Shown here: in pieces, positions 2,140 to 59,267 of the stretch | Layout: the number at the start of each line of letters is the position of its first letter | Numbering within the stretch: position 1 is the stretch's first letter | From: a virus | Length of the DNA: 64,000 nt | Strand: one strand, 5' to 3' | Virus record (IMG/VR): IMGVR_UViG_3300035180_001563 | Coordinates: 58,194 to 122,193 of that record | Position numbers and translations under genes: made by a program | Notes under the pieces: model-generated | Seen by the model: only the letters and a program-made list of their open reading frames with translations | Databases searched by the model: none | Told to the model about the DNA's origin: nothing

Positions 2140-2166
2140 TACAAAACACCTCTTGCAAATGTTTCG

Positions 2167-2174
2167 TATTTATA
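2167..2174 (-). promoter_or_regulatory. late promoter TATAAATA upstream of gp16
   Basis: TATTTATA on the plus strand reads TATAAATA on the coding strand, 28 bases before the gp16 start and just behind the gp4 stop. It matches the T4 late -10 box read by gp55. Confidence 0.65.
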
Positions 2175-2176
2175 CC

Positions 2177-4017: not shown

Positions 4018-4035
4018 AATAAGGTTTATCTTATA

Positions 4036-4058
4036 AGTATTGATTATTTATCAATACT
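4036..4058 (-). promoter_or_regulatory. 9-bp palindrome with a late-promoter-like box in its centre
   Basis: AGTATTGAT and ATCAATACT flank TATTT. On the minus strand the centre reads GATAAATAA, close to the late box, about 20-40 bases before the start of the tube-like gene at 4017. It may be promoter and hairpin at once. Confidence 0.4.
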
Positions 4059-4065
4059 GTACAAA

Positions 4066-4097
4066 AGAAAAAAGACCACTCAATGAGTGGTCTTTTT
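4066..4097 (-). terminator. rho-independent terminator after gp19
   Basis: The stem AAGACCACTC / GAGTGGTCTT has a short loop and is followed on the minus strand by a T-rich run. It sits 16 bases past the gp19 stop. A-rich and T-rich flanks make it potentially bidirectional. Confidence 0.8.
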
Positions 4098-4112
4098 GTT
4101 GAGTTATGCTGA

Positions 4113-8627: not shown

Positions 8628-8800
8628 AATGGATCTCCTTAATTAAAGCATTTGTTAACTGTAATTTTTTGTATAGTTTGTGTGCAATACGGGACTACAA
8701 TTATTTCAAATTGTATTTATGAAAACACCCACATATTTTGGTTTTTATACAAATATTTCTCATTAACTGTGGAGATAACCATGTGTATTAATTAGATATT

Positions 8801-9562: not shown

Positions 9563-9584
9563 ATGTTAACCTTACTGTTTTTGA

Positions 9585-9592
9585 TATTTATA
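9585..9592 (-). promoter_or_regulatory. late promoter TATAAATA upstream of gp15
   Basis: Perfect TATAAATA on the minus strand, 23 bases before the gp15 ATG and 33 bases past the stop of the upstream neck gene. Confidence 0.65.
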
Positions 9593-9624
9593 TGTTCATT
9601 TAACCACCATTCATTGAATGGTGG

Positions 9625-12289: not shown

Positions 12290-12319
12290 ATAGTTATTGT
12301 ACAACTTCTGGGTTTAGCA

Positions 12320-23452: not shown

Positions 23453-24355
23453 TTATATTACTAATGCTCTTATTATCTCTGTGATATCGTTAAACTTATC
23501 ATACTTTATAACATGTAAATTGTGTTCTTGGGCTCTAGCGTATTGTTTTTTAAGCGAATCACGATACTTCATCTCAGTGTAACGTTGGTTTGACTTGTGA
23601 AAAAAATGATGTTTTTTGTAGTGTTGTTCCCCATTATACTCAATTAGTATACGTTTTGATGGAACGTAAAAATCAAAAATCAGCAACTGATCTTTATATC
23701 TGACCCGATATTGAAATTCATAAGATATCATGCATTCATCAAGTATCATTTGAATTTGTTTCTCTCCTCTCGACATAGAGCAATAAGGACACCCTTCTCC
23801 AGATAAATGTTTGTTTGGAGTTTGTGTAAATTCTCCATGTTTATTACAAATAATACGCACCTTTTTTCTTGCTCCAAGATAATCAACTTGTGAGTAATCA
23901 TAACGGTTACCGTGTATTTTGGTGAATTTTTCTTTTATATTCAAACTATGGTTTTTTATTTGTAACATCGATACAACTTGTTTGGAACATAACATACATC
24001 CTGAATTTTTGTTAATTACATTATCAAAAGAAGCACTCCATGTATAATTACATGTGTTACAAGTCCATTGAACTTTTTGTTTATATTTTACAAACTCACC
24101 CTCGAACGATAAATTTTTATGCTTAAGCTTTGTTAGTATTTGTTGCATCGATTGATGCTTGCCTGCACATTTTGGACACCCTTGCTTAGAATTTATATGA
24201 GCGTCAGGAGTTTGGTTGAATACCCCATGTACAGGACATTTAATATTAATTTTTGTTTTTGCATTTACATATGTTGACAGGGTATAATCATATTTAAAGT
24301 TATGTACATTGTTTGACTTTTTTACAAAATCTTCTTGACTTGCGCCTTTTCCCAT
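23453..24355 (-). CDS. homing endonuclease with zinc modules, next to gp20
   Basis: 300 residues. Two DUF723-type zinc modules, each with an H-x-x-KYDY or HGNRYDY start, a CPVHG or CNKHG knuckle and a GCPKC or GCPYC knuckle, flank a CNTCNYTW zinc ribbon. The C-terminal EDxHD-type nuclease has SRGEKQIQMILD, LLIFDFYVPSKR, ILIEYNGEQHYKK, then YRDSLKKQYARAQEHNLHVI. It differs from the WHS group by EQHY in place of YWHS. It lies upstream of the portal gene on the same strand and is divergent from the next HE gene. Confidence 0.82.
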   Translation of the reverse strand: MGKGASQEDFVKKSNNVHNFKYDYTLSTYVNAKTKINIKCPVHGVFNQTPDAHINSKQGCPKCAGKHQSMQQILTKLKHKNLSFEGEFVKYKQKVQWTCNTCNYTWSASFDNVINKNSGCMLCSKQVVSMLQIKNHSLNIKEKFTKIHGNRYDYSQVDYLGARKKVRIICNKHGEFTQTPNKHLSGEGCPYCSMSRGEKQIQMILDECMISYEFQYRVRYKDQLLIFDFYVPSKRILIEYNGEQHYKKHHFFHKSNQRYTEMKYRDSLKKQYARAQEHNLHVIKYDKFNDITEIIRALVI

Positions 24356-26037: not shown

Positions 26038-29000
26038 TTAAGTTCTTTTTGGAGCGTTTGCTGTTGGAGCAACAGCAGTCACTCTAGCTTCATGTGCTCT
26101 TAACATAGAGTTGGTGTTTATTTTTTCACTCTCAACAGCATAATAAGCATCTGCTAGTGTTGATGTTGCGTCACTAGTATCTTTAGTGAAATTATTATTT
26201 GTTGTCATTAATTTTACTAATTGTTGCATCGAGTTCTTTAAGTCTTCCATTAACTGAGCTTGAGTTTCCTGTGCTTCAACTGGACCTTCTACACCCTCAA
26301 CTTTAGGAGATGGTGTATAAGGAGATACTACTCTACTCAATCCAGTAGCTCCTCTTGCTACTGGTCCTATTTTATTTCTAGTTGGATTTGGGATTGCAGT
26401 CATCCTATCGAGTGTATTAAGTTTTGCTTCTGTCATTGATGCAGCACCTATGTCTCCTCGATTGTATGCATTGTTCGTATATGCGGTTAAATTAGTTTTG
26501 TTACCGACATCACTAGGTTGATTTGTGTTTTTGTCTTTGTTACCACCAAACCAATCTACAATAGAACCCCAAATGTTTTTAAAGAATGCTTTTGCTTTAT
26601 CCATATATTCACTTATAATTTTTCTTGCCCCAGACAGTATTTCAATTCCACTAGACACTGCCGATTTTGCAGATTCTCCAATAAAATCAAATGCTGAACC
26701 AATACCACTACGGATTTTTTGTCCAAGCCACGCACCAGCTTTAAAAGGTAAACTAAGCAAACCAAGACCTGAAGTTACTCCCGACTTCAGGCTCCCAGCA
26801 ACAAAATCAAATACTGAACCAAATCCTTTTCCAATCATCTTTCCCAAAGCCCCTCCACCTTCTCCCCCTAACCAACCCCCTATAGCTCCTCCAATAGCCC
26901 CACCAGCCCATGTTCCAACAGGACCTAAGAATGATCCTACAATTGCTCCAATCCATTCACCAGCTAAGGCACCTCCAGCTACCCCAGCTGCAGTTCCAAC
27001 TCCAGCTCCAACTCCAGCTCCAACGGATTTTCCTACCTTTCCTGAACTAGCGTATTCTTCAGTCCCTGCTGACACTCCAGAAAATATTCCAGCAATTGGT
27101 CCCAAAAATTTCATCAATTTTGGTGCAAATTCTCCAACATCCCTAGCCAATATAGCAGCTTTTGGTCCAACTTTTCCTTTTTTAAACACATCTAATACAT
27201 CTTTTCCCAACTGCATAACACCAGCTTTCTGAGCGAAAGCAAACATACCAACAGCAACACCAAATGCAGCAACCCATATTCCAAAATTCTTTGCAGCTGA
27301 ATCCATCAACGCTTCAGCTTTGATAGCTGTGCCTCCTGCCCCAACAGCACTACTCTTAATTACCTTTTGTATCTCTTTATCGATTTCTGCTTGTGATTTC
27401 CCCTTCTCTTTACCCAATCTTTGAGCTTCTTGTATTTTTTCAATGGTATCAGTCATTCCTACTGTTAATTGATCGAATGCATTTAGTCTAGCCTCTGCGG
27501 CGCTGGCTGCGCCACTATCCCCCCTATTGTATGCACTGGTCATTTGTTGTTGTAATTCTCCCCGTTTCTTGGCTGTTTCTTGCATCTCGGCCATCAGTTT
27601 CGGATTATCGAACTGTCTCATACGGATTAAATCCCCCATCTCCTTAGCCTTACCAGGATCAACTCCTATCATCATAGCGCCAGCAGTTATCTTTGCAGAA
27701 GTTTGATATCTTTGTCCGAGAGTTTGACTACGGAGTTTTTCCATTGCACCTGCTACAGCTATTGCCTTTTCAGCCGAAAGACCCATTGCTGACAATTCTT
27801 TTGCGCGTGCCAACATAGTTTTGTTCATCATAACTTGTTCTTGGCCAGACAACGTGTTTAAACTATCCTGGATCTCTGATGACTCCATTTGAGCTTCATA
27901 CAATTTCATCAATTCTTCCGAACTTTTTCCAGTGATTGCAGTCATCTCTCTCAAGTGTTTAGTCCATCTATTTGAACCTTGATCTATCGTTTCTCCACCT
28001 TGTTCATATGACTTGGTAAAATTTATTACTTCCATATTCAATGCAGCTGCTAATTTAGGATCCCCCGTTAATTCAAAAAACTTAGAATTATATTTTTCTA
28101 GATTTTTTGTGGTTTCTTCAATACCCTTACCACCAAACGCAGCTTGCGAATTTTGACCTAATATTTTCTGGAATTCTGATGCTGACAAAAACAGCTTCGT
28201 TGCTTCTGTAAACATCGGTGCAACACCAGTTGTATATGCAGCCCTAGCTACTTCTTTAAATTCCCCGTATGCTTTTGCTCCAAAATAAGTAACTGCTGCC
28301 GATGCAACGGATAATATAGAAAATCTGAGTGTACCAAGTATACTGGTAATTCCATTGGCGGAAGCTGCTTCTATATCTTTCGAACCAACACCCATCTTTC
28401 CTAATATACTAGCTTTCCCTCGTTCGTGAAGCTCTTTAACAAAACTGTGATCCATGTTATGAATAGACTCAACTGCTTTAACTGTTCCGTCAGACAACTG
28501 CATTAGTTTAGAATTAAGAACTCCTGTCGTTCCAGCGAGTCTTTTTTGTATTTCATTATAATCCTTGATCCCAGTTAAACCATCTAGTGACCCCCCAACC
28601 TTTTGCATTTCTTGTGACAATTTTCCCAAACCCTTCACAAATAAGGCTTCTGCTGCTGCTTTGCTTGTTGGATCTGTTGACTTGTCAAATAACTCTTTGG
28701 CTGTCTTAATCGACTTATTATATCCTTCCAGCTGAGCTGTTTGACTCCTCACGGTATCGATAAGATTGCTGAACTCTCCAGCCGTTCTAACTCCTTGAGA
28801 TTTAACTAAACTAGTTAGATAACTATTTCCTTTAACTATATCTTCTGCAGTCTTCTGTAATGCCTCCGGTAAATCCTTAGAAATTGTGCTTATATGCTCT
28901 GCAGTTCGTTCAACCTCACTAATTAGACTTGCAACCATATTACTGTGAATCTCTAAGTTTTTTGAAGTTTTCGTTGTTGCTGTGTTCAATTCTTTGAATT

Positions 29001-35709: not shown

Positions 35710-38589
35710 TTACTCTTCTTGAAGTGACTCAATTGGGTCAAAAGTGTCTACTTCTTGTATACTACTGAAACCACCTTTCATCTGAACGGTGAGAGTTCTA
35801 TCAAAAACGCTTCCAATTTCATCTCGGTGAGAAATGATGTAAATATTCAGATCTTCATCTCTAGCCTTCTTCTTTAGCATCTTAGCTGACGATTGAACCC
35901 CCACAGAATCCAAACCAACATCAAGCACTTCATCTAATAAACAAATGTTAATTGGTGTGTGTAATTTTTGTAAGACATCTCTAAACGCCAAAGATAATGC
36001 CAGATTGACTCGGGCACGTTGTCCATTTGACAAGTTTCCAAAACTTAAAGGTCTTCCATATAAACTAATCTTTGCTGTCATTTCATGAGTAAACTCAACT
36101 CGATGAACTAACCCAACCTGAGTCAAGTAATGATGAAGTCTCATGTTTAAGAACGGCAAGTTTCTATTAAGTAAAGCCTTTCTAACGAAACTATCCTTTT
36201 TTGTTAAAAGCTTTAACAAGAACTGTTGATGGTCTTGTGTTTTCTTCATCTCATTCAGATTCGTATAATCAATTGGATCGATATCCAATTGTTCTAATTC
36301 TCGGAGAGGCTCCAAGAAAGGGTTTACAGATTTTGTTAAATCTTCCACTTTCTGTATAATTACCTGTTTTTGAGTGTGAATCTCAACCAATTGTTCTATG
36401 TCATCAACCTGCTTTTGTTTCTTTTTAATCTTTAATAAAGTAGATAGATCTTCATCATCGGCGTCAGCGTCGTCTAACCGTTCACTGTATTGACTTAATA
36501 GTGTTTTTGCTTCTTCTAGATTATCTGTGCATTGAGAAATCTTTGATTCAGCATCGGCAAATTGTTGTAAACAATATGGACACTTTTGATCGGATAAATG
36601 GATAAGCTCATGTGTACTATCTTTAATAGTTTTTTCACATCGAAGAATAGAAGCTTTCAACTGCTTCCGTTCCAACATATTATCCTTTAGTTGTTTTTCC
36701 AATTCAGTAACTTCAGTATGTAACTTTTTTTCAACTTCAACGTCAACTGATTCTGCTTCTTCTAATTTTCTCTCATAGTCAACGATTGTTTGAGCATTCG
36801 TGTGTGACCATGTTTCAACTCGCTGTTGAGCAACTTTGAGTTGATCGTTATATCTCGAGTGTTCCTTTTCTAATTGTTCAATACGAACTTTTTGAATCGT
36901 CATCGAGTCTTCATTTGATTTAATCATTTCCTTTAAGATGACTGCTTGTTCAGATAACACTGTAAGGTTGAATAACCGTTCGATAAAGTCAGTTTGATTG
37001 GCTTGATAATGAGAATTCACAGGCATATCTAAGAAAGGAGTATGATTTGCAGATATAACAACAATCCGAACAAACATATCGTATGGCATTCCAATTACAT
37101 CTTGTATAGCTAGATCTGTGTTTTTTACGCTATCCCGAGCTTTATTATCCCCATTAACAAAAAAGTGTACAGAGTTTTCTCTTCCAGACTTTCCAGACTT
37201 TCTTCTTCGTTCAATTTTATATTGAACTCCACCTTTTTCAAATTCAACAATAACTTCAAGATTTTTTCCATTGATATTATTTATCAAATCGTCAACTTTA
37301 ATATCAGAAATTGGTCTATCATAGATTGCATAGGTAAGAGCATTCATTAATGTTGTGTTATGAGTTACGATAAAGTTGTCGGTTATGTATAAGTGATCTG
37401 GGTGATCGATCATAATACACTTTGTGTTCTGCATTCCTAAAAAATCAATAGAGTCTATCCTTAATCCCATGTTTGCATATTGTGTTTGTCCTGTTGTCAC
37501 CCGATCTTTTTTTCGAGTCAAGGAGAATAGTTGAGATGGGGTGTGATAATTAATACTTACGTTGAAAGATGGGCGTCCAGGAATCCTTTCATTATTCTTA
37601 TTCTTATAAAATGGTAAACGTGTGGTCATTTTAGCTGTTCCACCCAACGACCTAACAAGATATTGAACGTCTGTTGCTAGTCTTAAACTTGTGGATGAGA
37701 AAGATATGTTGTGTGTTTTACCAACTGTACCGTCTGTATCAAGTAAACCCTGTAATAGTTGCAATTTCTGCATTTGAGACGTTTTGAGCATATATTGGTC
37801 TGGTATAAATTTTTCATAACTATAACAACCCCACACTCCTATATTCATCAATATTGACCTTAGTGTGTTGCCCTTTGAACGAGTAACGTTATTACACACT
37901 ACATAGTCTTTCGTGTTGTTACGACCGAACAGTCGTAAGTGTTGTCCTAGTGTAATCAGTTGTTCATTAACGCGATTCACAATATGTGCGTCTATAGAAG
38001 TAAACTTGGGAGTTTTATCCGTAAGTCTACCATCTCCCAGCAAAGCACCTAGTAAATATGGGTCTAGTGGTAATTGTGCATCTGAAATATCTTCATGTTT
38101 TGGTAGTGGGACAAAAATTTTATAAGAGTTTCTGTTATAACTAGGATTCATCACCAGTTGTTCTAGTTCCAACGTGGTTAGGGTTTTGGTTCCTCGTTCT
38201 CCAATCGAACCCCACCTAGGTGAAAACACTGACCACAAATGTTCACTGTCTGCTTCAGTTTCTCGGCCATCACCAAATCGAATTTTATACGTAGGTCGTA
38301 CCCCCTCTTGTGGGAATGTATCAATGACCTTTGCGACACTACCGTCTGGTGTTATGACATCGTCACCAGTTTGGATATCACCCATGGTTGTCCACCCAGA
38401 CGGCGTCTTTATGTTACAATGTAACGGTTGCGCTTTACCAACGCCGTTACTGCTTTGACCATTAGTTGTATTATCCAAGTCTTCACCCAAAATTAACGTC
38501 GTACCTGTTTTCTGTAGATCGACTACAGTTTTAACTTTTCCATATGACATGAAATTTGATAAGGAGATTGTTTTAAATTCGATTTTCAT
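35710..38589 (-). CDS. 46: recombination endonuclease subunit gp46 (SbcC/Rad50-like) with intein
   Basis: 959 residues, of which 359 (53-411) are an intein; the spliced protein is 600 residues (T4: 560). The extein parts show an SMC-type ATPase. Walker A is NGVGK^TTLMN, split by the intein at the lysine. The coiled coil has a zinc hook CPYC near its turn. The ABC signature is FGNLSNGQRARVNLALSLAF and Walker B is INICLLDEVLDVG. With gp47 it resects DNA ends for recombination-dependent replication. Its start lies three bases after the gp47 stop. Activity requires splicing, since the nucleotide-binding loop is otherwise interrupted. Confidence 0.93.
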   Translation of the reverse strand: MKIEFKTISLSNFMSYGKVKTVVDLQKTGTTLILGEDLDNTTNGQSSNGVGKAQPLHCNIKTPSGWTTMGDIQTGDDVITPDGSVAKVIDTFPQEGVRPTYKIRFGDGRETEADSEHLWSVFSPRWGSIGERGTKTLTTLELEQLVMNPSYNRNSYKIFVPLPKHEDISDAQLPLDPYLLGALLGDGRLTDKTPKFTSIDAHIVNRVNEQLITLGQHLRLFGRNNTKDYVVCNNVTRSKGNTLRSILMNIGVWGCYSYEKFIPDQYMLKTSQMQKLQLLQGLLDTDGTVGKTHNISFSSTSLRLATDVQYLVRSLGGTAKMTTRLPFYKNKNNERIPGRPSFNVSINYHTPSQLFSLTRKKDRVTTGQTQYANMGLRIDSIDFLGMQNTKCIMIDHPDHLYITDNFIVTHNTTLMNALTYAIYDRPISDIKVDDLINNINGKNLEVIVEFEKGGVQYKIERRRKSGKSGRENSVHFFVNGDNKARDSVKNTDLAIQDVIGMPYDMFVRIVVISANHTPFLDMPVNSHYQANQTDFIERLFNLTVLSEQAVILKEMIKSNEDSMTIQKVRIEQLEKEHSRYNDQLKVAQQRVETWSHTNAQTIVDYERKLEEAESVDVEVEKKLHTEVTELEKQLKDNMLERKQLKASILRCEKTIKDSTHELIHLSDQKCPYCLQQFADAESKISQCTDNLEEAKTLLSQYSERLDDADADDEDLSTLLKIKKKQKQVDDIEQLVEIHTQKQVIIQKVEDLTKSVNPFLEPLRELEQLDIDPIDYTNLNEMKKTQDHQQFLLKLLTKKDSFVRKALLNRNLPFLNMRLHHYLTQVGLVHRVEFTHEMTAKISLYGRPLSFGNLSNGQRARVNLALSLAFRDVLQKLHTPINICLLDEVLDVGLDSVGVQSSAKMLKKKARDEDLNIYIISHRDEIGSVFDRTLTVQMKGGFSSIQEVDTFDPIESLQEE
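37357..38433 (-). other. class 3 intein with LAGLIDADG endonuclease in gp46 Walker A
   Basis: 359 residues starting with Ala (AQPLHCNIKTPSGWTTMGDI) and ending VTHN before Thr. There is no Cys/Ser/Thr at position 1. The covarying class 3 triplet is seen: Trp in block B (SEHLWSV), Cys in block F (NTKCIMID) and Thr in block G (VTHN). Two dodecapeptide motifs, LLGALLGDGRL and LLQGLLDTDGTV, show an intact homing endonuclease. Splicing would start from the block F Cys. Confidence 0.85.
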
Positions 38590-44258: not shown

Positions 44259-44287
44259 TTGTCATGTTATTCTTCTGGTGTTATAAT
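44259..44287 (+). promoter_or_regulatory. sigma70-type promoter for dsbA-like gene and gp43
   Basis: TTGTCA (44259-44264), exactly 17 bases, then TGTTATAAT with an extended TG (-10 at 44282-44287). This is the strongest host-type promoter seen in the window, right after the hub gene stop. Confidence 0.75.
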
Positions 44288-44325: not shown

Positions 44326-44637
44326 ATGGCTCGACCAAAAAAACAACCAGATACAGCCCCCGTCACAAATGCAGCTCCCTCTTCCCCAGCGGACCGAGAA
44401 AAACTTAGAACGATGCTTGAAGAAATTGTCCATGCAATGAGACGGGCAGATGATGAGAAGGTGTCTATTAAGGAAATTAAAGACGAAATCAAAAAACAGT
44501 TTGGTATTGCTCCAAAATACACAGGCAAGATGGCAAAAACAATGTACAAACATGCATTTGATGAAGTCAAAGCAGAAAATTCTGAATTTGAAGATCTTTA
44601 TCAAACTATCGTTGAAGGAATCAGCGAAGACCAATGA
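44326..44637 (+). CDS. DsbA-like double-stranded DNA-binding protein
   Basis: 103 residues. After a basic, proline-rich lead (MARPKKQPDTAP) comes a helical core: REKLRTMLEEIVHAMRRADD, VSIKEIKDEIKKQFGIAPKY, AKTMYKHAFDEVKAENSEFE, ending LYQTIVEGISED. This pattern matches T4 DsbA, which binds late promoter regions and enhances transcription. It overlaps the gp43 start by four bases (ATGA), so the two are coupled. Ribosome site AAGGAGA. Confidence 0.62.
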   Translation: MARPKKQPDTAPVTNAAPSSPADREKLRTMLEEIVHAMRRADDEKVSIKEIKDEIKKQFGIAPKYTGKMAKTMYKHAFDEVKAENSEFEDLYQTIVEGISEDQ

Positions 44638-47600
44638 GTTACATATCTGCTTTGTATCGTCGCTCAGACGATGAGGTAATTGTGTGGGAACGAAATAATG
44701 GGGTTCGGGATGTCAAGAAATATCCTGCTCCTTATCATTTCTATATAGAAGATGAAAAAGGTAAATATAAAAGTATTTTTGGAAAAAAGCTCAGAAAAAT
44801 TGAGTTTGATTCAAATGAAGAATTTCAAAATACAAAAAGAAAACTATCAAGAACACCGTTATATGAGTCTGACATAAATCCAGACATAAAGATACTTTCG
44901 CAATTTTATTATAATGTAACTCCTCCAAAGTTGAATGTGACGTTGTTGGATATTGAGGTTGATTATAATCCATTAATTGGATTCTCTTCCACAAAAAATC
45001 CATATGCTCCAATAAATGCTGTTGCTCTACATCATATACATACAGATAGATCTATTGTTATTGCTGTTCCTCCTCCAAAGTGGGACAAATCAACATTCGA
45101 CGAGTCATTACGAGAATTGTCTGAAATTGTGTTTGTTCGTAATGAGAAGGAATTATTAAATATATTGTTAGATGAAATTGAAGACTCTGACATATTATCT
45201 GGTTGGAACTGTATTCCTGAGACACAAAATGTGTGGCTTCGAGATAAAATCGTCCCGTTCCGACAAATTGGGTCACAATTGTATGACTCTACTGTACTCC
45301 GTAAGTCTGATATAATGGATAAACAACTTACAACCATTACAACTGCGTTGGGACACACATTTGAGTGTTCTCCAGAACACAGATTTCCAGTGTTGTTGGT
45401 ACCTAATGAAAAATACACAAATCTACAAAACAAAATAGTTCAACGGGTGGATATTTCTGTAAACCAAATGGTGTCGTTGATGAATGATGGCTATTCAATA
45501 TTTACAGAATCGTGTGTTCGTAATAATACGAATACATGCAACCCGTTGTTTACTAATGAACAACTATATTTGGCTGGGTTAATTTACACTGATGGAACAC
45601 TAAAGGACAAAAATAATGTAATTGATACTGGGTATGTGGTGTATCAATCAGATAGTGAAGTTCTTAACAACATACCTTTAGTTACAACAAAGTTAGTTGG
45701 GCCTCACAAGAGATGTTATTCAAGAGTGATCGAGTTTTCACTATTGGGAAAAGAAGTTCATAATTTAATCTACGAAGATACGAAAAAACGACTGAATGTA
45801 GAAAAACTATCAACGCTATCAAAAAAACAATTTTATTATTTTTTGGCTGGGTTGTTAGACGGAGATGGATATGTTTCATCGAACAGCGTTGAGTTGTGCA
45901 ATTATAATAATGACACAAGTGCCTTGGCTGAATTATGTTTATGGAACGGAATTATCACGTCAATAAGACCAAATGTGGTTAGATTTTTAAATTTATCTGT
46001 TTTGGATATACCTACACTAAAACTTAAACGACGGACAACGATATGTTCTACCTACCATCCTATTTTAAAAAGAGATTCAAACCAAAAGGCTAAACAAACA
46101 ACTTTTAAAGTTATAGGTCAGTCTCTGTACACAAGGATTTGTGATATTAATATTTCCGACCTCAAAGTCCCAATGATGGACATAGAGACAGATACTCATT
46201 ATTTTTATTCAAAGGGAACAAAGACTCACAATAGTGACTTCTTTGATATGCCATATATTGCTAAACGGATTGAAAAAACTTTAGGAAAAAGTCAGCTACG
46301 ACGATTATCTTTTGAGGGGGCTGACATGCCTCGTTATCGAGAAGTTGAGGTGTTCAAACAACAGCAGATTGCGTGTGATTTGTCGGGTCGAGTACATCTT
46401 GATTACATGAATTTATTCAAAAAATATGAGGTTGCTGAAAGACCATCATATAAATTAGAATCGATTGCAGAGGAAGTGTTACCACATCTACCAAAATTGG
46501 AATATGAGGGTTCATTAGCAGACTTATATAAGAAAGATTTTAATCATTTCATCAAATATAATATTAGAGATACGGAAATCCTTAAAGGGTTTGAGAAAAA
46601 ATTAGGTTATATTTCTTTAGCAAACGTAATGTGTCATTCATCCACATCCCAATTTAAGGATGTGTTTGGTACATTGAAGTTGTCTGACTTCGCTGTTGTA
46701 AACTACTGTCATTACGAGCTAGACGTAAAAGTTCCAGATTGGGATGGAGATAAACCAGATGGAAAGATTCAAGGAGCATATGTTCTATTACCACAGATCG
46801 GATTGCATGAATGGATTGGAAGTATCGATATTGGTGGACTATATCCAGCAAGTATACGAAGTATCAACATTTCACCTGAAACGTTGATTGGACAATTTTC
46901 AGATAAAGTAAATGATTGGGAACGAATTTTTAATAATACCGATGATGATCTTACACTTGAATATGATACAGGTGAAGTAGAGACTAGGACAGCAGTAGAA
47001 TGGAAGAAATATTTATTAAATAAAAAGTGGGCTGTTAGTGGGTTTGGAACAGTATTTGACCAAAACACACCTGGAGTTTTCCCAGCAATTCTATCATCGT
47101 GGATCAATAAACGCAAAGAGTATCAAAAGTTAAAAGCAAAGTACTATGCTGATGCAGAGGCTTGCACAGATCCAGACGAAAAGAGTAAGTTAGAGGAACT
47201 ATGTGCATACTATGATCGTCTGCAATATGTAATGAAAATTAAGAGTAATAGTTTTTATGGAGCTATTACAAACTTTTACTTCAGGTTTTTTTCGTTAAAT
47301 GGAGGAGAGTCTGTAACCGGGACTGGAAGAATAGTTCTAAAACATCAAATTAAAAAAACAGCAGAGATTCTTGATGGTGAGTATAACATAGAACCTCCTT
47401 TTGATGAGGATAGTTTCAATAAAATGGGGAGAACGTTTCCATCTGAATCGATAATATATTCAGATACTGACTCAGTTGTTGGATCGACTGTTCACATCAC
47501 AAACCAAGGAGATCAAACGATTGAGACGTTGTTTAATATGTACTCATCTGATAACTGTAACAACTTTACGTGCAAACCACAAAATTTAGAAGTTCTCACA

Positions 47601-47819
47601 TATGATCCGATTAATCAGAACCCATACATGGGAGAAGTTGAATACATATACAGACATCTGGTCAGTAAAGAAAAATGGTTAATACAAAGTGAGCATGGTG
47701 ATTCTGTTGAAATTACCGGTGACCATTCTGTAATGGTAGAACGTGAAGGAAAGTTGATTGAAGTTAAACCCGAAAATATTATTTGTGGTGATTTGTTAAT
47801 AACGTGTGTAGAAGTATGA
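44634..47819 (+). CDS. 43: DNA polymerase gp43, N-terminal part with one whole intein and one split N-intein
   Basis: 1061 residues. The exteins make a family B polymerase. Exo I is VTLLDIEVDYNP; exo II is SGWN^SDFFDMPYIAKR, interrupted by intein 1 (residues 193-533); exo III is YNIRDTEIL. Motif A is IDIGGLYPASIRSINIS and motif B is MKIKSNSFYGAITNFYFRFF. Motif C begins IIYSDTD and is cut there by a split intein (from residue 947). The gene stops at the end of the N-intein; the rest is encoded at 48903-49862. Both catalytic regions, exonuclease and polymerase, therefore depend on protein splicing. The start overlaps the dsbA-like gene. Confidence 0.93.
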   Translation: MSYISALYRRSDDEVIVWERNNGVRDVKKYPAPYHFYIEDEKGKYKSIFGKKLRKIEFDSNEEFQNTKRKLSRTPLYESDINPDIKILSQFYYNVTPPKLNVTLLDIEVDYNPLIGFSSTKNPYAPINAVALHHIHTDRSIVIAVPPPKWDKSTFDESLRELSEIVFVRNEKELLNILLDEIEDSDILSGWNCIPETQNVWLRDKIVPFRQIGSQLYDSTVLRKSDIMDKQLTTITTALGHTFECSPEHRFPVLLVPNEKYTNLQNKIVQRVDISVNQMVSLMNDGYSIFTESCVRNNTNTCNPLFTNEQLYLAGLIYTDGTLKDKNNVIDTGYVVYQSDSEVLNNIPLVTTKLVGPHKRCYSRVIEFSLLGKEVHNLIYEDTKKRLNVEKLSTLSKKQFYYFLAGLLDGDGYVSSNSVELCNYNNDTSALAELCLWNGIITSIRPNVVRFLNLSVLDIPTLKLKRRTTICSTYHPILKRDSNQKAKQTTFKVIGQSLYTRICDINISDLKVPMMDIETDTHYFYSKGTKTHNSDFFDMPYIAKRIEKTLGKSQLRRLSFEGADMPRYREVEVFKQQQIACDLSGRVHLDYMNLFKKYEVAERPSYKLESIAEEVLPHLPKLEYEGSLADLYKKDFNHFIKYNIRDTEILKGFEKKLGYISLANVMCHSSTSQFKDVFGTLKLSDFAVVNYCHYELDVKVPDWDGDKPDGKIQGAYVLLPQIGLHEWIGSIDIGGLYPASIRSINISPETLIGQFSDKVNDWERIFNNTDDDLTLEYDTGEVETRTAVEWKKYLLNKKWAVSGFGTVFDQNTPGVFPAILSSWINKRKEYQKLKAKYYADAEACTDPDEKSKLEELCAYYDRLQYVMKIKSNSFYGAITNFYFRFFSLNGGESVTGTGRIVLKHQIKKTAEILDGEYNIEPPFDEDSFNKMGRTFPSESIIYSDTDSVVGSTVHITNQGDQTIETLFNMYSSDNCNNFTCKPQNLEVLTYDPINQNPYMGEVEYIYRHLVSKEKWLIQSEHGDSVEITGDHSVMVEREGKLIEVKPENIICGDLLITCVEV
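45210..46232 (+). other. LAGLIDADG intein in gp43 exonuclease motif II
   Basis: 341 residues, Cys1 (CIPETQNVWL) to THN, followed by Ser. Block B is GHTFECSPEHRFPV. The two endonuclease motifs YLAGLIYTDGTL and FLAGLLDGDGYV are intact. Block F is PMMDIETDTHYFYSKGTKTH. It sits at the codon between GWN and SDFFD. Confidence 0.88.
47472..47816 (+). other. split intein N-fragment (115 aa) at gp43 motif C
   Basis: It begins with Ser at SVVGSTVHI (block A) after the extein YSDTD. Block B is VEITGDHSVMVER. The frame ends TCVEV and stops, with no LAGLIDADG region. Its partner is encoded at 48903-49058. Confidence 0.88.
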
Positions 47820-48961
47820 AATATACTCTACATGATTTCATCGTATCGTCCCAGAGCATCCATGGTGACAAATATGATTATTCAAAATCTATTTACATAA
47901 GTTCGAAAATCAAGATAGAGATAATATGTAGACAACATGGGTCGTTTTGGAGTCTTCCAACGAATCACATATCTCGTAAATCTGGATGTCCTACATGTAG
48001 TGGGTATAATACAAACAAACATAGTTTTATAAAAAAAGCAAGAAAGGTACATGGAGAAAAGTATGACTATTCATTAACAGATTACAAGTCGCCTTTTGAA
48101 AAAATTAGTATTGTTTGTCCTGAACATGGAGAGTTTGTTCAATTTCCCAACAACCACCTGAATAATAAACAAGGATGCTCTGCTTGTTCGGGGAACAAAA
48201 AGAGCAACGTAACAGAATTTATTGAAAAATCAAAGTTAATACACAATAACAAATATGATTACACATTGGTAGAATACTCTAATAATTCTACAGCGGTAAA
48301 TATTCTGTGTCACGTTCATGGTAAGTTCACTCAACAGCCAGACTCACATCTCCAAGGTCACGGTTGTCCAGCCTGTTCTGGACTTAAACGTGTATCTATT
48401 TCTGACTTTATTGAAAGATCTAAGTTAGTTCATGGGGATACTTTTGACTACTCAAACGTAACCACTATTAAAAATACGTATACTAAAATACCAATAATAT
48501 GTAAAATACACGGACAATTTTATCAGACACCTGAACTTCACTGGTTATGTGACGTGTGTTGTCCAGGGTGCAACCGAGTATCATTTTCCAGAAAGAGCAT
48601 AGAATGGTTAACTCAAATGGAAAACACGTACAACATCACGATTCAACACGCACTCAAGCCTGGGGGTGAATTCCGTATTCCTGGAACGAGACTTCATGTA
48701 GACGGATATTGTATACAAACAAATACGATATATGAATTTCATGGTGATATATGGCATGGTAATCCAACAAAATTTGAACCAAATGAACTTTGTCATCCAT
48801 ACAGCAAACTCACCGCAGGAGAATTATTCGCAAAAACAACTCAACGTGAGGAATTGTTACGAAGTTTAGGGTATACCTTAATAACTATATGGGAGAACGA
48901 TTATGATATCATCCGAAGGAAAAACATACAAAATAGTAAAAACACGCATACAGACTGTTAA
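47816..48961 (+). CDS. Vsr-like homing endonuclease inside the split gp43 gene
   Basis: 381 residues from the ATG in the ATGA overlap with the polymerase N-half stop. Four tandem DUF723-type zinc modules (HGDKYDYSK, HGEKYDYSL, NNKYDYTLV, HGDTFDYSN starts, each with C-x2-HG and GCP-x2-C knuckles) fill residues 1-255. The nuclease follows: FRIPGTRLHVDGYCIQTNTI, YEFHGDIWHGNP, REELLRSLGYTLITIWENDY. It lacks the RWSxG C-terminal module. Its 3' end overlaps the start of the polymerase C-half by 59 bases in another frame. Inferred to spread the fractured polymerase allele. Confidence 0.87.
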   Translation: MKYTLHDFIVSSQSIHGDKYDYSKSIYISSKIKIEIICRQHGSFWSLPTNHISRKSGCPTCSGYNTNKHSFIKKARKVHGEKYDYSLTDYKSPFEKISIVCPEHGEFVQFPNNHLNNKQGCSACSGNKKSNVTEFIEKSKLIHNNKYDYTLVEYSNNSTAVNILCHVHGKFTQQPDSHLQGHGCPACSGLKRVSISDFIERSKLVHGDTFDYSNVTTIKNTYTKIPIICKIHGQFYQTPELHWLCDVCCPGCNRVSFSRKSIEWLTQMENTYNITIQHALKPGGEFRIPGTRLHVDGYCIQTNTIYEFHGDIWHGNPTKFEPNELCHPYSKLTAGELFAKTTQREELLRSLGYTLITIWENDYDIIRRKNIQNSKNTHTDC

Positions 48962-49058
48962 GAGATCTGGTACGTTTGATGAAGAGTACGTATATGATTT
49001 TGGGATGAAGGATCAAACTAAGCCTTGGTTCTTTGGGAACAACATTCTGCTACACAAC
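48903..49058 (+). other. split intein C-fragment (52 aa) at gp43 motif C
   Basis: MISSEGKTYKIVKTR start, block F DEEYVYDFGMKDQTKPWFFG, block G NNILLHN, then Ser at +1. Its length and blocks complement the 115-residue N-fragment exactly, so the split is the canonical one, unlike the terminase intein. Confidence 0.88.
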
Positions 49059-49862
49059 AGCGTTTACTTCAAAACGCATGCTACAAATCAACTCGAAGCT
49101 ACACAAACTGCTGACGCTGTCGCCACTGTAGTAAACGATTCATTTCAATCGTTTATGCAAAAGGCATTCTTGTGTAATCCAGGATACGATGATTTGATAA
49201 AGTCAAACAGAGAAGTGGTTTCAGATCGTGGAATTTTTGTTGATAAAAAACGGTATGTCCTCCATCTTGTTGATTTAGATGGTCACAACGTCGACAAACT
49301 GAAGATTATGGGTCTTGAATTAAAAAAGACTACCCTACCAAAGCCAATCGCAAAAAAACTTTCATCGTTTGTTGAACGACTATTAAAGGGTGACGATTGG
49401 ACTCTTATTGCAAGAGATATTGTTGATTTTAAAGTTGAATTAATGAATACATCTGATATTACGACGATTGGACTGCCAAAAGGAATCAAAGGTGTCGAAG
49501 ACTACACTTCAGCTTGGAAACTTGATAGTAAAACTAGATTACCAGGGCATGTGAGTGCTGCAATTCTTTGGAATACAATGTTACTCGAACATGGAGATAA
49601 AGAAAGTACTGAAATTACTTCAAATATGAAAATCAAAGTGTTTTATTTGACAAGAATGTTTGGTCGATTTAAAGCAATTGCAGTACCAACTGATTTGGTA
49701 ATCCTTCCACAGTGGTTTATTGATAACTTCATTCCGATCATTGATAAAGAACTGCAGATTGAGAAATTGGTAGATGATACAATTCAGAAGATTCTGACAG
49801 CAATTGATAAAGAAGCTCCTAGTAGACAGAGTATGTTCGTTGAAGAGATGCTTGAATTCTAA
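48903..49862 (+). CDS. 43: DNA polymerase gp43, C-terminal part with C-intein
   Basis: 319 residues. Residues 1-52 are the intein C-fragment; the extein starts SVYFKTHATN, which completes motif C (YSDTD^SVYF). Polymerase thumb features follow: VVSDRGIFVDKKRYVLHLVD, KIMGLELKKTTLPKPI, and VSAAILWNTM. The C-terminus QSMFVEEMLEF is the conserved clamp-binding tail of T4-type polymerases. The ATG has GGAG seven bases ahead, inside the HE gene. After trans-splicing the polymerase has about 872 residues (T4: 898). Confidence 0.93.
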   Translation: MISSEGKTYKIVKTRIQTVKRSGTFDEEYVYDFGMKDQTKPWFFGNNILLHNSVYFKTHATNQLEATQTADAVATVVNDSFQSFMQKAFLCNPGYDDLIKSNREVVSDRGIFVDKKRYVLHLVDLDGHNVDKLKIMGLELKKTTLPKPIAKKLSSFVERLLKGDDWTLIARDIVDFKVELMNTSDITTIGLPKGIKGVEDYTSAWKLDSKTRLPGHVSAAILWNTMLLEHGDKESTEITSNMKIKVFYLTRMFGRFKAIAVPTDLVILPQWFIDNFIPIIDKELQIEKLVDDTIQKILTAIDKEAPSRQSMFVEEMLEF

Positions 49863-54893: not shown

Positions 54894-55862
54894 ATGCCGA
54901 AAAAATTAACATCAGAACAATTCATACAAACATCAAATCTAATTCATCATAACAAATATGATTATTCTGAGGTTGTGTATGTTAACTCTAAGTCTCCAGT
55001 AACTATAATATGTCCAACCCATGGAAAGTTCACACAAACACCCAATAACCATACTATAGCAAAACAAGGATGTAAAATGTGTGGTATTAATTGTACATCA
55101 ATTAAAAATTCATTAAATACAAAAACATTCATCGAGAAGTCCAGACATATACATGGTGAATTGTATGATTATTCACAAACGATATATACACGAACTTACG
55201 ACCCCGTAAATATCATATGTCCTTCTCATGGTATATTTTCAGTAGTAGCCAAGGAACATACTTCTGTCAAGCACAAACGTGGATGTCCAGAATGTAGTAG
55301 AATTTCATATAGAAACAAAAGGCAAAAAGTGTTGAGTGACTTTATAGCTGATGCTACAAGTATTCATGGAAACATATACGATTATTCACAAGTTGAATAT
55401 AATACTACATTTGAGAAGGTTTCTGTAATATGTGCAAAACACGGACCTTTCTGGGTTCCTCCAAACGCTCATGTGTCTGGAAAAACTGGTTGTCCGAAAT
55501 GTAATATGTCAAAAGGTGAAAGATTAATAAAACAAAGACTCGAGCAATTCGGAATATCATTTCAACAACAAAAAACCTTCGAAACGTGTGTTAATGATAT
55601 CACAAATAAAAAACTCCGTTTTGATTTCTATTTAACAAAGCAAAACATATTAATAGAATATGATGGTGAATCTCATTTTACACCCGTAAAGTTTAATGGT
55701 ATGACAGAAGAACAGTCAATCTCGGAATATATGAGAGGACAGTACAGAGACATTCTCAAAAATAACTGGTCAATTGAAAATAACATATATTTAATTCGCA
55801 TCCCCTACTATATACCAAAAGAAGACTTCGATAATATATTCAAAGAACTTTCGTGTATATAA
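54894..55862 (+). CDS. homing endonuclease with three DUF723-type zinc modules
   Basis: 322 residues. Modules start at LIHHNKYDYSEV, HIHGELYDYSQT and SIHGNIYDYSQV, each with C-x2-HG and GC-x2-C knuckles, spanning about 1-205. The nuclease is the EYDGESHF type: KGERLIKQRLEQFGI, LRFDFYLTKQNILIEYDG, then a long helix YMRGQYRDILKNNWSIENN. It is close in build to the gene at 23453. It sits between the PAAR gene and a small virion-type gene. Confidence 0.83.
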   Translation: MPKKLTSEQFIQTSNLIHHNKYDYSEVVYVNSKSPVTIICPTHGKFTQTPNNHTIAKQGCKMCGINCTSIKNSLNTKTFIEKSRHIHGELYDYSQTIYTRTYDPVNIICPSHGIFSVVAKEHTSVKHKRGCPECSRISYRNKRQKVLSDFIADATSIHGNIYDYSQVEYNTTFEKVSVICAKHGPFWVPPNAHVSGKTGCPKCNMSKGERLIKQRLEQFGISFQQQKTFETCVNDITNKKLRFDFYLTKQNILIEYDGESHFTPVKFNGMTEEQSISEYMRGQYRDILKNNWSIENNIYLIRIPYYIPKEDFDNIFKELSCI

Positions 55863-55936: not shown

Positions 55937-56371
55937 ATGAAGGGAAAATACAGACATTTGGAGTGGTTGGAATTAGAAGGTGGTATCATGACAGAATGTG
56001 CTATCATGAAAAGATCAAACGATGGACATACGTGGTTTTTCCCTGTGTCTCCACTCGATACAGTTGACAAACAAAGATTGTTAAATGTACTTAAAAACCG
56101 TAACTCTGAGCTGTATGAACTTTGGGATCTCATGTCTCAAATTACTCTCGGAAATGGTATTAATGCATTAACATATTTTAACCAACTTGTTAAAGTTAGA
56201 ACACCATCTGGTCAGATTGTTCCTTTTGGAAGTGGACGTTTTGGTGCTCCTACAGCTCCAAACCCTTACGGAAACCAAACAGAATTATCCGATAATCTTT
56301 CAGATAATTCTGATCAACTTAGTGAGGCAGTTGCTGTTGCTAAGGCAGGACGTGGTAGAACTGGACGTTGA
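55937..56371 (+). CDS. hypothetical protein, 144 aa
   Basis: Starts at the ATG with AGGAGA (55937); an earlier in-frame start would run through the hairpin. Not recognised. A beta-rich first part (KYRHLEWLELEGGIMTECAI, TWFFPVSPLDTVDKQRL) precedes a helical part (RNSELYELWDLMSQITLGNG). A Ser/Asp-rich and Gly/Arg tail ends AGRGRTGR. A strong bidirectional terminator follows. Confidence 0.65.
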   Translation: MKGKYRHLEWLELEGGIMTECAIMKRSNDGHTWFFPVSPLDTVDKQRLLNVLKNRNSELYELWDLMSQITLGNGINALTYFNQLVKVRTPSGQIVPFGSGRFGAPTAPNPYGNQTELSDNLSDNSDQLSEAVAVAKAGRGRTGR

Positions 56372-56385
56372 CATTTTCAACAGAC

Positions 56386-56419
56386 AAAATAAAACCGCCT
56401 TCGGGCGGTTTTATTTTTT
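56386..56419. terminator. bidirectional rho-independent terminator
   Basis: AAAACCGCC ttcg GGCGGTTTT flanked by A-rich and T-rich runs, between two converging genes. The stop codon of the minus-strand HE gene lies inside the right arm. Confidence 0.9.
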
Positions 56420-58105
56420 CCATATATCAAATCTTATAGTACCACAATCCCATAACTTATGGTATCCTCGTTCTTTCATAATTTCAAATTCTGTTTTGTT
56501 TGGATCAAACCCCAGGCTTACTAAATTTGATTTTTTAAAATTGTATCTGTACAATCTAGCAACTTTTTGAGTTTGTATATACCAATAATTTGGTTTACTG
56601 TATGATGTTAGTGTAAAACCAAGCTGTTCATATAAGTTGCCTGTAGACCACCGTCTATCCGCATAACTATATATGTGCGTCCAATTATGATTTTTCTTGA
56701 AGTGTGTTAATAATTTTCCGGCGGCCCCTCGGACTACATATTTTGAATTGGTTGCAAATCTATTTAACTCCCAACTTCCATCTCCATTTATTTTATTTTT
56801 TCCGCCTTTTAGGTGGGATGGAGCTGAAAATGTCATAACTGCAATCAATTCTTCATCAAAAAACAAACCTAAAGATACTTTTGCTTTGTCTGCTCCTTGT
56901 ATATGAAACTGATTCAAAAACGAATTCTTTTGATATGCTTCTATGCTTCTTATATTACACTGTCTCGCATTGATTCTCAAAGAATTAGAGTGCTCTAATA
57001 TGTGTGATATCTTTGACTTTACTGTCTCTGGAGAGTTAATCCATTCATCTTCAAATATTGTTAATAATTTGTAACCACGCTCTCTACACTTTTCTAATTT
57101 TTTAACATGATAATATCTATCATCTTTAACAGCATCCGAGTGCCAATATAACCCACAATATTCGATTGCTATCTTGTGGTTGGGAATAACGATATCAAGT
57201 TCTTGTGGATGTATTATTTGTCTGTCACATATGATAATATCTTCTCCTACAATAGAACGAACAAATTGTTCAACTTGTTGTTCACCTGCTGACCTGTATT
57301 TTGTGGGAAAACTAACACTTTGTGATTTAATTAATTTTTCAAATGTATCCTTACCTATACCAAATGTTGAACATATTTCTGTTAAAGACATATTATTAAC
57401 CATATTTGTTAAAATATCTTTAACATCATCATCATTTTTCAAGTCATTAAATTCAGCAGATAATCGGATGTCAGTCCCTTCTGTTTTAATCCCCCACATC
57501 TTTACATGTTTGCGAAGATATCCAGTACTAACTCCAACCAATTTCCCTATATGGGTAAGCGGGATTCGTTTGTTGTAATATAAATCTTCAACAACCTGTT
57601 TCGTTAAAGGATATTGAGCATTTTTTTGTGACAGTAAACTCTTTCCAGTTGAGCTGTTGTGTAGTGTAATATCATGTAATTTACATAAAGACACAACCAT
57701 ACTTTGACCACAATCTAAAGCTTTCATGATATTAGATTGAGTGATGTGTTCATTCACTAAATCAACAAAACTTGCTTTATTAATAGCGATTAAATAATTT
57801 TTATATGACAGTTCTTTAAATTTAACTGGTTTTCGTATTTTATGTTTGTTCAACACTGTAACGATGGGTTGAGTTGACGTTCCAACCCTAGACGCAATTT
57901 CGGTTATACTTAAATCTTGTGTATACCATTGTATTACTTGTTGTTCATCTATCGAGCACTTGCGTGGTTTTGCAGGTTTCCATACATTGTTTTTCTGTAA
58001 CAACCACCTTATCTTATCCACTGAACAGTCGTGTTCACGTGCAAGAATTTTTAGTTGTTTTCCGTTTTGGTAATCTTCAATGATTTGATGTGTTTGTGAT
58101 TCCAT
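56411..58105 (-). CDS. Vsr-like homing endonuclease with HTH array and RBS-sequestering leader
   Basis: 564 residues. The N-terminal half is a chain of helix-turn-helix units: KQLKILAREHDCSVDKIRWL, LSITEIASRVGTSTQPIVTV, IPLTHIGKLVGVSTGYLRKH, MSLTEICSTFGIGKDTFEKL. The nuclease has AGEQQVEQFVRSI, PQELDIVIP, IAIEYCGLYWHSD and FEDEW. The C-terminal module has ARQCNIRS, NQFHIQGAD, ELIAVMTFSAP, GAAGKLLTHFKKNHNW, SYADRRWSTGNLYEQLGF and KLWDCG. The ribosome site and start codon lie in one arm of a perfect inverted repeat. It is inserted in a fibre-gene region. Confidence 0.87.
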   Translation of the reverse strand: MESQTHQIIEDYQNGKQLKILAREHDCSVDKIRWLLQKNNVWKPAKPRKCSIDEQQVIQWYTQDLSITEIASRVGTSTQPIVTVLNKHKIRKPVKFKELSYKNYLIAINKASFVDLVNEHITQSNIMKALDCGQSMVVSLCKLHDITLHNSSTGKSLLSQKNAQYPLTKQVVEDLYYNKRIPLTHIGKLVGVSTGYLRKHVKMWGIKTEGTDIRLSAEFNDLKNDDDVKDILTNMVNNMSLTEICSTFGIGKDTFEKLIKSQSVSFPTKYRSAGEQQVEQFVRSIVGEDIIICDRQIIHPQELDIVIPNHKIAIEYCGLYWHSDAVKDDRYYHVKKLEKCRERGYKLLTIFEDEWINSPETVKSKISHILEHSNSLRINARQCNIRSIEAYQKNSFLNQFHIQGADKAKVSLGLFFDEELIAVMTFSAPSHLKGGKNKINGDGSWELNRFATNSKYVVRGAAGKLLTHFKKNHNWTHIYSYADRRWSTGNLYEQLGFTLTSYSKPNYWYIQTQKVARLYRYNFKKSNLVSLGFDPNKTEFEIMKERGYHKLWDCGTIRFDIWKK

Positions 58106-58166
58106 GTAATATTTACTCCTGTGTAGTTTATTTATTTTTGTTCACACAGGAGTAAATATTACATGG
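58102..58166 (-). promoter_or_regulatory. perfect 23-bp inverted repeat hiding RBS and start, late-like box in the loop
   Basis: Arms 58102-58124 and 58144-58166 are exact reverse complements; the loop is 19 bases. On the minus strand the 3' arm carries AGGAG and the ATG of the HE gene, so read-through mRNA would fold and block translation. The loop reads AAATAAATAAAC, close to the late box. A transcript starting there would lack the 5' arm and be translatable. Confidence 0.7.
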
Positions 58167-58175
58167 ATTTAAAGG

Positions 58176-59267
58176 TTATGCAGTGCTTCTGGCTACCTGA
58201 ATAATAAGGGTATATATAATAGTTAAGGTTCTATTCTGACTCTTGCGAACAGGACTGAATATCAAATGAGTTAAAAGTCGTTCTCCCTCTAAGTTGGAGT
58301 CTGTTGTATTATTTTGTAATCCAGCACCTTGCCCAGTAACAGCAGTTTCAACTGCTAAATATCCAACCAAAGAATTAAACATCCAGTTTGGTGGAGGATT
58401 TACTGTATCGACGACAACAGTGGAGGTTGAACCAACAGAATTGGAAACGAATCGAAGAGCACCATAAGTATTCACAGTACCAGAAGTATTTGAAATTTGT
58501 GCTATACAACCCGACATTGTTCCTGGAACATTAAGTATTTCTATCAAGTCACTGTACAACAATTCACCACCCACACCTGAACCAGTACCTGTATTAAAAG
58601 TTATAACTTGCTTTGTTCCACTATCTACAGTAATACTGAAAGTATATACGGTGTTTTGAGTAAGTCCAGTTACGCTTGTATCAAACTTAGTCCCCACATT
58701 AATATCCTGATAACCTGCAGTATTAATTAACGAAGACCCAGAAGTAAATAAACCAATTTCATCAAACACGAACGCATCTTGAGGATTTTCTGAAGGTGGT
58801 AATTGGTCAGTGATTGTTTGACCTGATGGTTCAAATGGATTAAGTGTACATGTAATAACAACTGAAGATGTTAACCCATTATCTTGACTAACTACTGAAT
58901 TCTTTGATGGGTCATTTGTAGGATCAGAGCCCGGTCCAGTTCCATCTAATAAACTTATTTCATCAACAACTTCAGAGTATGTTTCGTTATATAATTGGGA
59001 TCTCCATCCCGCAGTATCAGGAGCTTGTCCATCGTTTGGTGTTTTATAGGCAATTTGTCCTGCGGCATTTATAATAGTTCCACCATTTCCAAAAGCCATT
59101 CTATATACGTATGAATTATTTTCGTGAGCCAAGGCTCTGGAGATAATTCGAGATAAATTTTGAGGATGTACAGCGTTAGTTTCATCTACATGAACTTGAC
59201 CCAAGTCATCAATAATTTTAGCGTGTCCCAATACACTCACTGGAAGGGAATATTCATTTATTTTCAT
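58176..59267 (-). CDS. tail fibre or baseplate-attached virion protein
   Basis: 363 residues. The N-terminal part (YVYRMAFGNGGTIINAAGQI, AGWRSQLYNETYSEVVDEIS) resembles structural proteins of marine T4-like phages. The middle includes an Fn3-like strand set (TGLTQNTVYTFSITVDSGTK). The C-terminus RTLTIIYTLIIQVARS is a hydrophobic strand, perhaps the trimer core. A perfect late box and a ribosome site precede it. The exact place in the virion is not known. Confidence 0.6.
   Translation of the reverse strand: MKINEYSLPVSVLGHAKIIDDLGQVHVDETNAVHPQNLSRIISRALAHENNSYVYRMAFGNGGTIINAAGQIAYKTPNDGQAPDTAGWRSQLYNETYSEVVDEISLLDGTGPGSDPTNDPSKNSVVSQDNGLTSSVVITCTLNPFEPSGQTITDQLPPSENPQDAFVFDEIGLFTSGSSLINTAGYQDINVGTKFDTSVTGLTQNTVYTFSITVDSGTKQVITFNTGTGSGVGGELLYSDLIEILNVPGTMSGCIAQISNTSGTVNTYGALRFVSNSVGSTSTVVVDTVNPPPNWMFNSLVGYLAVETAVTGQGAGLQNNTTDSNLEGERLLTHLIFSPVRKSQNRTLTIIYTLIIQVARSTA

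What the first reader, a model, noticed from the sequence alone, without database searches (positions are those of the whole stretch)
44634..49862. DNA polymerase needs two splicing events, one cis and one trans
The polymerase carries a complete LAGLIDADG intein in exo II and a split intein at motif C (YSDTD^SVYF), with a zinc-finger Vsr-like endonuclease gene between the halves. Both proofreading and polymerising sites are interrupted. Three frames overlap: N-half stop with HE start (ATGA), and HE 3' end with C-half start (59 bases). Fractured polymerase genes of this kind are known only from few phage and metagenome cases.
Basis: partly seen in the sequence, partly recalled or inferred. Interest (0 to 1): 0.85.

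Follow-up and report, generated by a model that had tools for sequence, protein, structure and literature searches.

The report
Phage DNA polymerase in two pieces
A large bacterial virus encodes its main DNA-copying enzyme in two separate genes that should be stitched together by self-splicing protein segments, with a selfish DNA-cutting gene lodged between them; the arrangement is real and well formed, but it belongs to a kind already known from other phages.

Summary
A phage family-B DNA polymerase (ligated product 872 aa) is interrupted by a 341-aa LAGLIDADG intein in exo II (GWN^C...HN^S) and is broken at motif C (YSDTD^S) into halves ending and starting in a 115-aa N-intein and a 52-aa C-intein. 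A 381-aa endonuclease gene lies between the halves. The predicted fold of its C-terminal domain best matches Vsr and the Vsr-like homing endonuclease I-Bth0305I. Removing the inteins restores gap-free alignment at both junctions against seven relatives. All canonical splicing residues are present. Splicing itself is inferred.

Each component is known. The same split intein at the same site is published for Pseudomonas phage MIJ3 and annotated in Aeromonas Aes508 and Tenacibaculum PTm1 (both with Vsr nucleases). I found the exo II intein allele at the identical site in about six other phage polymerase lineages. What looks unusual is that one polymerase carries both: none of the 92 IMG/VR loci compared does, apart from copies of this one.

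Beyond the finding, the same 122-kb record holds a second fractured gene (terminase) and a third cis intein (SbcC). A sister phage has those sites and exo II empty, and a different, unsplit motif C intein two codons upstream.

The parts
44634..45209 (+). Polymerase extein 1 (192 aa): N-terminal and exo I (LLDIEVD) region, ending at GWN of exo II
   Evidence: PF03104; alignment to 7 relatives
45210..46232 (+). Cis intein in exo II, 341 aa, GWN^CIPETQ...KTHN^SDFF; LAGLIYTDG at 45570-45596 and LAGLLDGDG at 45843-45869
   Evidence: homologues at the identical site
46233..47471 (+). Polymerase extein 2 (413 aa): rest of the exonuclease domain, motifs A and B, and YSDTD of motif C (47457-47471)
47472..47819 (+). 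N-intein of the split intein (115 aa, SVVGST...ITGDHSVMV...) and stop codon TGA
   Evidence: PF14890; TIGR01445; homologues
47816..48961 (+). Endonuclease gene, 381 aa: four zinc-finger-like repeats (about residues 1-258), then a Vsr-like nuclease domain (about 259-377) with D296-G and YEFHGDxWHGN
   Evidence: phrog_681 E 1.6e-55; conservation; model and fold match
48903..49058 (+). C-intein of the split intein (52 aa, ...YVYDFGMKDQTKPWFFGNNILLHN^S)
   Evidence: the only upstream ATG of this frame before the conserved block, preceded by GGGAGA
49059..49862 (+). Polymerase extein 3 (267 aa): SVYF of motif C and the remaining C-terminal part of the polymerase domain; stop codon
   Evidence: phrog_262 E 6.4e-36

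Best explanation
This is a fractured family-B DNA polymerase gene of a jumbo-type tailed phage. Three overlapping genes make three proteins. In the N-half, a complete class 1 intein with a LAGLIDADG nuclease domain cuts itself out of exo II in cis. The N-intein on the N-half then binds the C-intein on the C-half, and trans-splicing joins YSDTD to SVYF, giving one 872-aa polymerase whose proofreading and polymerising motifs are both rebuilt. The gene between the halves is a Vsr-like homing endonuclease. It most likely cuts intein-free polymerase alleles near motif C, so that repair copies the split intein with the nuclease gene. The exo II intein would spread in the same way through its own LAGLIDADG domain. 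Shown: gene layout, intein homology, exact junctions, catalytic residues, predicted nuclease fold, empty sites in relatives. Inferred: splicing, assembly of an active polymerase, DNA cutting, homing.
For: Ligated product of 872 aa aligns gap-free at both junctions to seven polymerases. N-intein has Ser1 and T-x-x-H; C-intein has VYDFGM, HN and +1 Ser; exo II intein has Cys1, block-B His, HN, +1 Ser and both LAGLIDADG catalytic Asp. The split intein is homologous to the MIJ3/PA5oct split intein (39% identity) and to the Salicola SCTP-2 cis mini-intein (46.5%). All eight split pairs compared carry opposite net charge on the two halves (window -11/+2), whereas SCTP-2's cis intein is -6/-4. Homologous exo II inteins of 335-343 aa sit at GWN^C in about six other polymerase lineages. 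At the same DTD^S site other phages have a cis mini-intein (L140) and a split intein without a nuclease gene (L156). dN is about 0.18-0.19 against a saturated or undefined dS in all three extein segments versus the sister phage, consistent with purifying selection on both halves. No Rfam intron in the window. Nuclease model (pLDDT 81.5) best matches 1vsr (E 0.013), 1cw0 and 3r3p I-Bth0305I.
Against: No splicing or nuclease activity was measured. Fold matches are modest (no PDB hit below E 0.001). Split phage polymerase 43A/43B of Aeromonas phage 25 is reported active as two co-purifying polypeptides (PMC2988022), so covalent joining is not the only way to make an active enzyme. Homing sites could not be tested. 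The cis LAGLIDADG intein of L013 also has oppositely charged halves, so charge is only supporting evidence.
Confidence: 0.9

Rival explanations
1. The halves assemble non-covalently into an active polymerase and the motif C intein no longer splices, as reported for the split 43A/43B polymerase of Aeromonas phage 25.
For: Split gp43 subunits of phage 25 co-purify and have polymerase activity (PMC2988022).
Against: All splice residues and both intein blocks are conserved here. The break lies inside the catalytic motif C, with 115- and 52-aa intein halves that would stay attached at the active site.
Confidence: 0.06
2. The polymerase is decaying or the locus is an assembly artefact, and another polymerase replicates the phage.
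For: The record is probably a fragment (122 kb against 320-385 kb in the nearest named relatives); a DNA Pol III alpha-like fragment is present, as described for group 2.2 jumbo phages (PMC7824862).
Against: No frameshift or internal stop; low dN on all three exteins; a polymerase broken in the same way in named, sequenced phages; no polA or second polB in the record.
Confidence: 0.03
3. The break is repaired at RNA or translation level (intron, frameshift or bypass) rather than by protein splicing.
For: Group I introns occur in gene 43 of related T4-like phages (PMC2993671).
Against: No Rfam match in the window; 20 in-frame stops and a conserved endonuclease ORF lie between the halves; the flanks are intein, not intron.
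Confidence: 0.01

Closest known systems
Split DNA polymerase B of Pseudomonas phages MIJ3/PA5oct (PMC6892783; NC_071039)
   Same: Homologous split intein (39% identity) at the same DTD^S site, with an endonuclease gene between the polymerase halves
   Different: The endonuclease is of another type (annotated Hef-like in PA5oct, HNH in the MIJ3 paper); exo II is uninterrupted; polymerase only 33% identical
Fractured gp43 of Aeromonas phage Aes508 (JN377894) and Tenacibaculum phage PTm1 (AP019524)
   Same: Annotated 'intein-containing split DNA polymerase precursor' with a VSR endonuclease between the halves at DTD^S. Aes508 combines this with a cis group I intron, so cis plus trans splicing of one polymerase is precedented
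   Different: Their additional breaks are an intron and a Seg-like gene (Aes508) or other inserted genes (PTm1), not a LAGLIDADG intein in exo II; intein identity 28-33%
'Fractured genes' described by Dassa et al. 2009 (doi 10.1093/nar/gkp095; text not held, from my knowledge and its citation in PMC6892783)
   Same: Enzyme gene broken by a split intein with a free-standing, often Vsr-like, endonuclease gene in between
   Different: No added cis intein in the same gene recalled
Salicola phage SCTP-2 polymerase mini-intein
   Same: Nearest relative of the window's split intein (46.5% identity, UFBoot 88)
   Different: Contiguous, no endonuclease, inserted two codons upstream (YGD^TDS)
Trans-spliced replicative polymerases: Nanoarchaeum equitans PolB (bipartite intein at pol-c; PMC549080) and Trichodesmium DnaE (split gene with several inteins; Liu and Yang 2003, title seen)
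   Same: Replicative polymerase needing trans-splicing; Trichodesmium DnaE combines cis and trans inteins (from my knowledge)
   Different: Cellular; the N. equitans split coincides with the pol-c allele position (YGD^TDS in Mimivirus), two codons from the window's; DnaE is an unrelated polymerase family

Membership tests
Fractured gene (split intein plus free-standing endonuclease) | Conserved enzyme gene broken into two ORFs | tested here: met
Fractured gene (split intein plus free-standing endonuclease) | N-intein at the end of ORF 1 and C-intein at the start of ORF 2, joining exteins exactly | tested here: met
Fractured gene (split intein plus free-standing endonuclease) | Free-standing endonuclease gene between the halves | tested here: met
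Fractured gene (split intein plus free-standing endonuclease) | Trans-splicing occurs | not testable with these tools
   needs expression; residues are present
Class 1 LAGLIDADG intein (exo II) | Cys1, block-B His, C-terminal HN, nucleophilic +1 residue | tested here: met
Class 1 LAGLIDADG intein (exo II) | Two LAGLIDADG motifs with catalytic Asp | tested here: met
   LAGLIYTDG and LAGLLDGDG
Vsr-like (EDxHD) homing endonuclease | Vsr fold | tested here: met
   AlphaFold pLDDT 81.5; the top Foldseek hits include 1vsr, 1cw0 and 3r3p at E 0.013-0.21, probability 0.97-1.00; none below E 0.001, so support is moderate
Vsr-like (EDxHD) homing endonuclease | Conserved acidic and His residues of the nuclease motif | tested here: met
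   D296 G297, E307, G310 D311, W313 H314 G315 N316, W359 E360 invariant in 11 homologues
Vsr-like (EDxHD) homing endonuclease | Cuts the intein-free allele and promotes homing | not testable with these tools
   needs cleavage and cross assays

The most novel reading that the evidence does not exclude
Interruption of both the proofreading and polymerising motifs makes the polymerase a double-gated zymogen, and the phage exploits the two splicing steps (with those of terminase and SbcC) as a timer or checkpoint for replication and packaging, rather than merely tolerating parasites.
Probability: 0.06. Interest if true: 0.75.

Novelty: new member of a known kind. Interest (0 to 1): 0.4.

Why it matters
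It gives a natural pair of inteins, one cis and one split, in a single essential enzyme, in a phage that carries a second, differently split intein in terminase. That makes orthogonality of split inteins testable in one cell and adds candidates for protein engineering, including one with a very short N-intein. The series at one site (empty, cis mini-intein, split intein, split intein plus nuclease) bears on how endonucleases break genes. The exo II intein allele appears to be a recurrent and little-described insertion site in phage polymerases.

Tried and rejected
Megablast of 16 kb against public phages: no match. Rfam scan for introns: none. Sequence searches of the endonuclease and the exo II intein against solved structures gave only chance matches or none. 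A single-sequence fold of the endonuclease failed (pLDDT 28); the aligned one worked. The Dassa 2009 text is not held. Literature searches for an exonuclease-domain intein together with a split intein, and for the AceL-TerL split intein, gave no paper. Sliding nucleotide identity to the sister phage was moderately high just around the exo II site (0.87 for codons 181-200) and low around motif C (0.53-0.65), too noisy to claim co-conversion. Promoter and terminator counts in the locus do not exceed shuffles.

Full report
WHAT IS THERE. The window is the right-hand 64 kb of a 122,193-base linear virus record. Neighbouring genes include a major head protein, tail sheath, tape measure, SbcC/SbcD, a clamp-like processivity factor and an exonuclease, so this is a tailed phage. 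Its polymerase is closest among named phages to those of the jumbo phages XacN1 (385 kb; 45% identity) and CM1 (320 kb; 42.5%). The record is therefore probably a fragment of a larger genome. The polymerase starts at 44634 with an ATGA overlap with the upstream gene, a weak DsbA match. It has three coding segments: exteins 44634-45209, 46233-47471 and 49059-49859.

THE TWO INTEINS. The first is a continuous 341-aa intein in exo II, GWN^CIPETQ...KTHN^SDFF. It has Cys1, a block-B His, HN and Ser+1, and two LAGLIDADG motifs that both keep the catalytic Asp. The second is split: 115 aa at the end of the N-half (Pfam Intein_splicing E 2.8e-8; NCBIfam intein_Nterm) and 52 aa at the start of the C-half, with Ser1, ITGDH, VYDFGM, HN and Ser+1. 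Removing both gives 872 aa. Both junctions then align without a gap to L013, XacN1, CM1, SCTP-2, PA5oct, KP13-7 and VPALA. I take this as the strongest evidence for the predicted splice points.

THE GENE BETWEEN. The 381-aa protein has four zinc-finger-like repeats and a C-terminal nuclease domain. It matches phrog_681 (endonuclease) at E 1.6e-55. Eleven homologues share an invariant D-G, then Y-E-x-x-G-D-x-W-H-G-N, then W-E. A model built on that alignment has mean pLDDT 81.5. Its top PDB matches include E. coli Vsr (1vsr, 1cw0) and the homing endonuclease I-Bth0305I (3r3p), at E 0.013-0.21 and probability 0.97-1.00. The label Vsr-like is thus supported by fold. Cutting and homing are inferred. 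The nuclease is not tied to this intein: among the 80 best IMG/VR homologues, only the one contig identical to the window carries the intein. The 122-kb record has several more paralogues.

RELATIVES AND HISTORY. The same intein family interrupts motif C in many phages, at two positions two codons apart. At DTD^S it is split in the window, PA5oct, VPALA, Aes508, CP21, PTm1 and LR756500. It is a cis mini-intein in L140, and split without any nuclease gene in L156. At YGD^TDS, the position the Mimivirus paper gives for the pol-c allele (PMC549080), it is a cis mini-intein in SCTP-2, a cis LAGLIDADG intein in L013, and split in KP13-7. In a small tree the window's intein pairs with SCTP-2's unsplit one (UFBoot 88), so being split does not follow descent; the tree is short and this is tentative. 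Homologous exo II inteins of 335-343 aa occur at the identical site in about six other polymerase lineages, some only 26-30% identical to this polymerase. Of 92 loci compared, only the window's own copies have both sites filled. Not every locus could be judged at both sites, and 80 of them were chosen for polymerase similarity, so this does not show that the combination is absent elsewhere.

SISTER PHAGE. L013 (178.8-kb contig; polymerase 75% identical) has an empty exo II site and a different motif C intein. Its terminase and SbcC are uninterrupted, and align without gaps to the window phage's proteins across the predicted junctions. dN is low in all three extein segments (about 0.18-0.19, dS saturated or undefined), consistent with purifying selection.

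BEYOND THE FINDING. The same record has a second fractured gene. The terminase N-half (window 767-1666, minus) ends in a 38-aa N-intein. A Hef-like endonuclease ORF follows. The C-half, outside the window, starts with a C-intein of up to 128 aa that holds the block-B and block-F residues and HN^C. Such very uneven splits are known from TerL inteins such as AceL-TerL (from my knowledge; no paper found). SbcC carries a 359-aa cis intein in its P-loop. The phage thus appears to carry four inteins in three genes, two of them split.

VERDICT. The parts are known: MIJ3's split polymerase intein (PMC6892783), Aes508 and PTm1 annotations, the fractured-gene class of Dassa et al. 2009, and cis plus trans inteins in Trichodesmium DnaE (the last two from my knowledge). 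The new elements are the combination in one phage polymerase and the exo II allele. I score it as a good new member of a known kind.

Noticed in passing
window 767-1666 (minus), continuing to record positions 56303-59051 (partly outside the window): Second fractured gene: terminase large subunit in two halves with a 38-aa N-intein and a C-intein of up to 128 aa, with a Hef-like endonuclease ORF between them; the ligated 536 aa aligns across the junction to an intact terminase in the sister phage.
   Followed up: partly
window 35713-38589 (minus): SbcC/gp46-like protein with a 359-aa cis intein (LAGLIDADG_3 E 4.6e-10) in the P-loop, GVGK^AQPLHC...VTHN^TTLMN; the sister phage has the empty site.
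   Followed up: yes
L013 (IMGVR_UViG_3300035181_001013): Sister polymerase carries a complete LAGLIDADG intein at YGD^TDS, two codons upstream of the window's site, so related phages hold different inteins at neighbouring positions of motif C.
   Followed up: yes
L156 around 7270-7960: Polymerase split intein at DTD^S with only a short gap and no endonuclease gene between the halves: an intermediate or a relic of nuclease loss.
   Followed up: partly
L015/L016 at 6422-10150 (and 907-4316): Polymerase with the homologous exo II intein whose frame breaks just before motif C without any recognisable intein; the same contig also appears to have an intein-interrupted helicase gene with an endonuclease ORF beside it.
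   Followed up: no
record positions 27773-28003 (minus), outside the window: DNA polymerase III alpha-like fragment (PF07733 E 2.5e-10), possibly the minimal split Pol III reported for group 2.2 jumbo phages (PMC7824862).
   Followed up: no
window 15788-17983, 11189-12304, 23453-24355, 54894-55862 and outside: Several paralogous zinc-finger endonuclease genes, some with the same WHGN nuclease motif, sit beside capsid, structural and recombination genes.
   Followed up: partly
window 44259-44287: Strong promoter-like sequence (TTGTCA-17-TATAAT with TG) just upstream of the polymerase operon; promoter counts in the region are not above chance overall.
   Followed up: no
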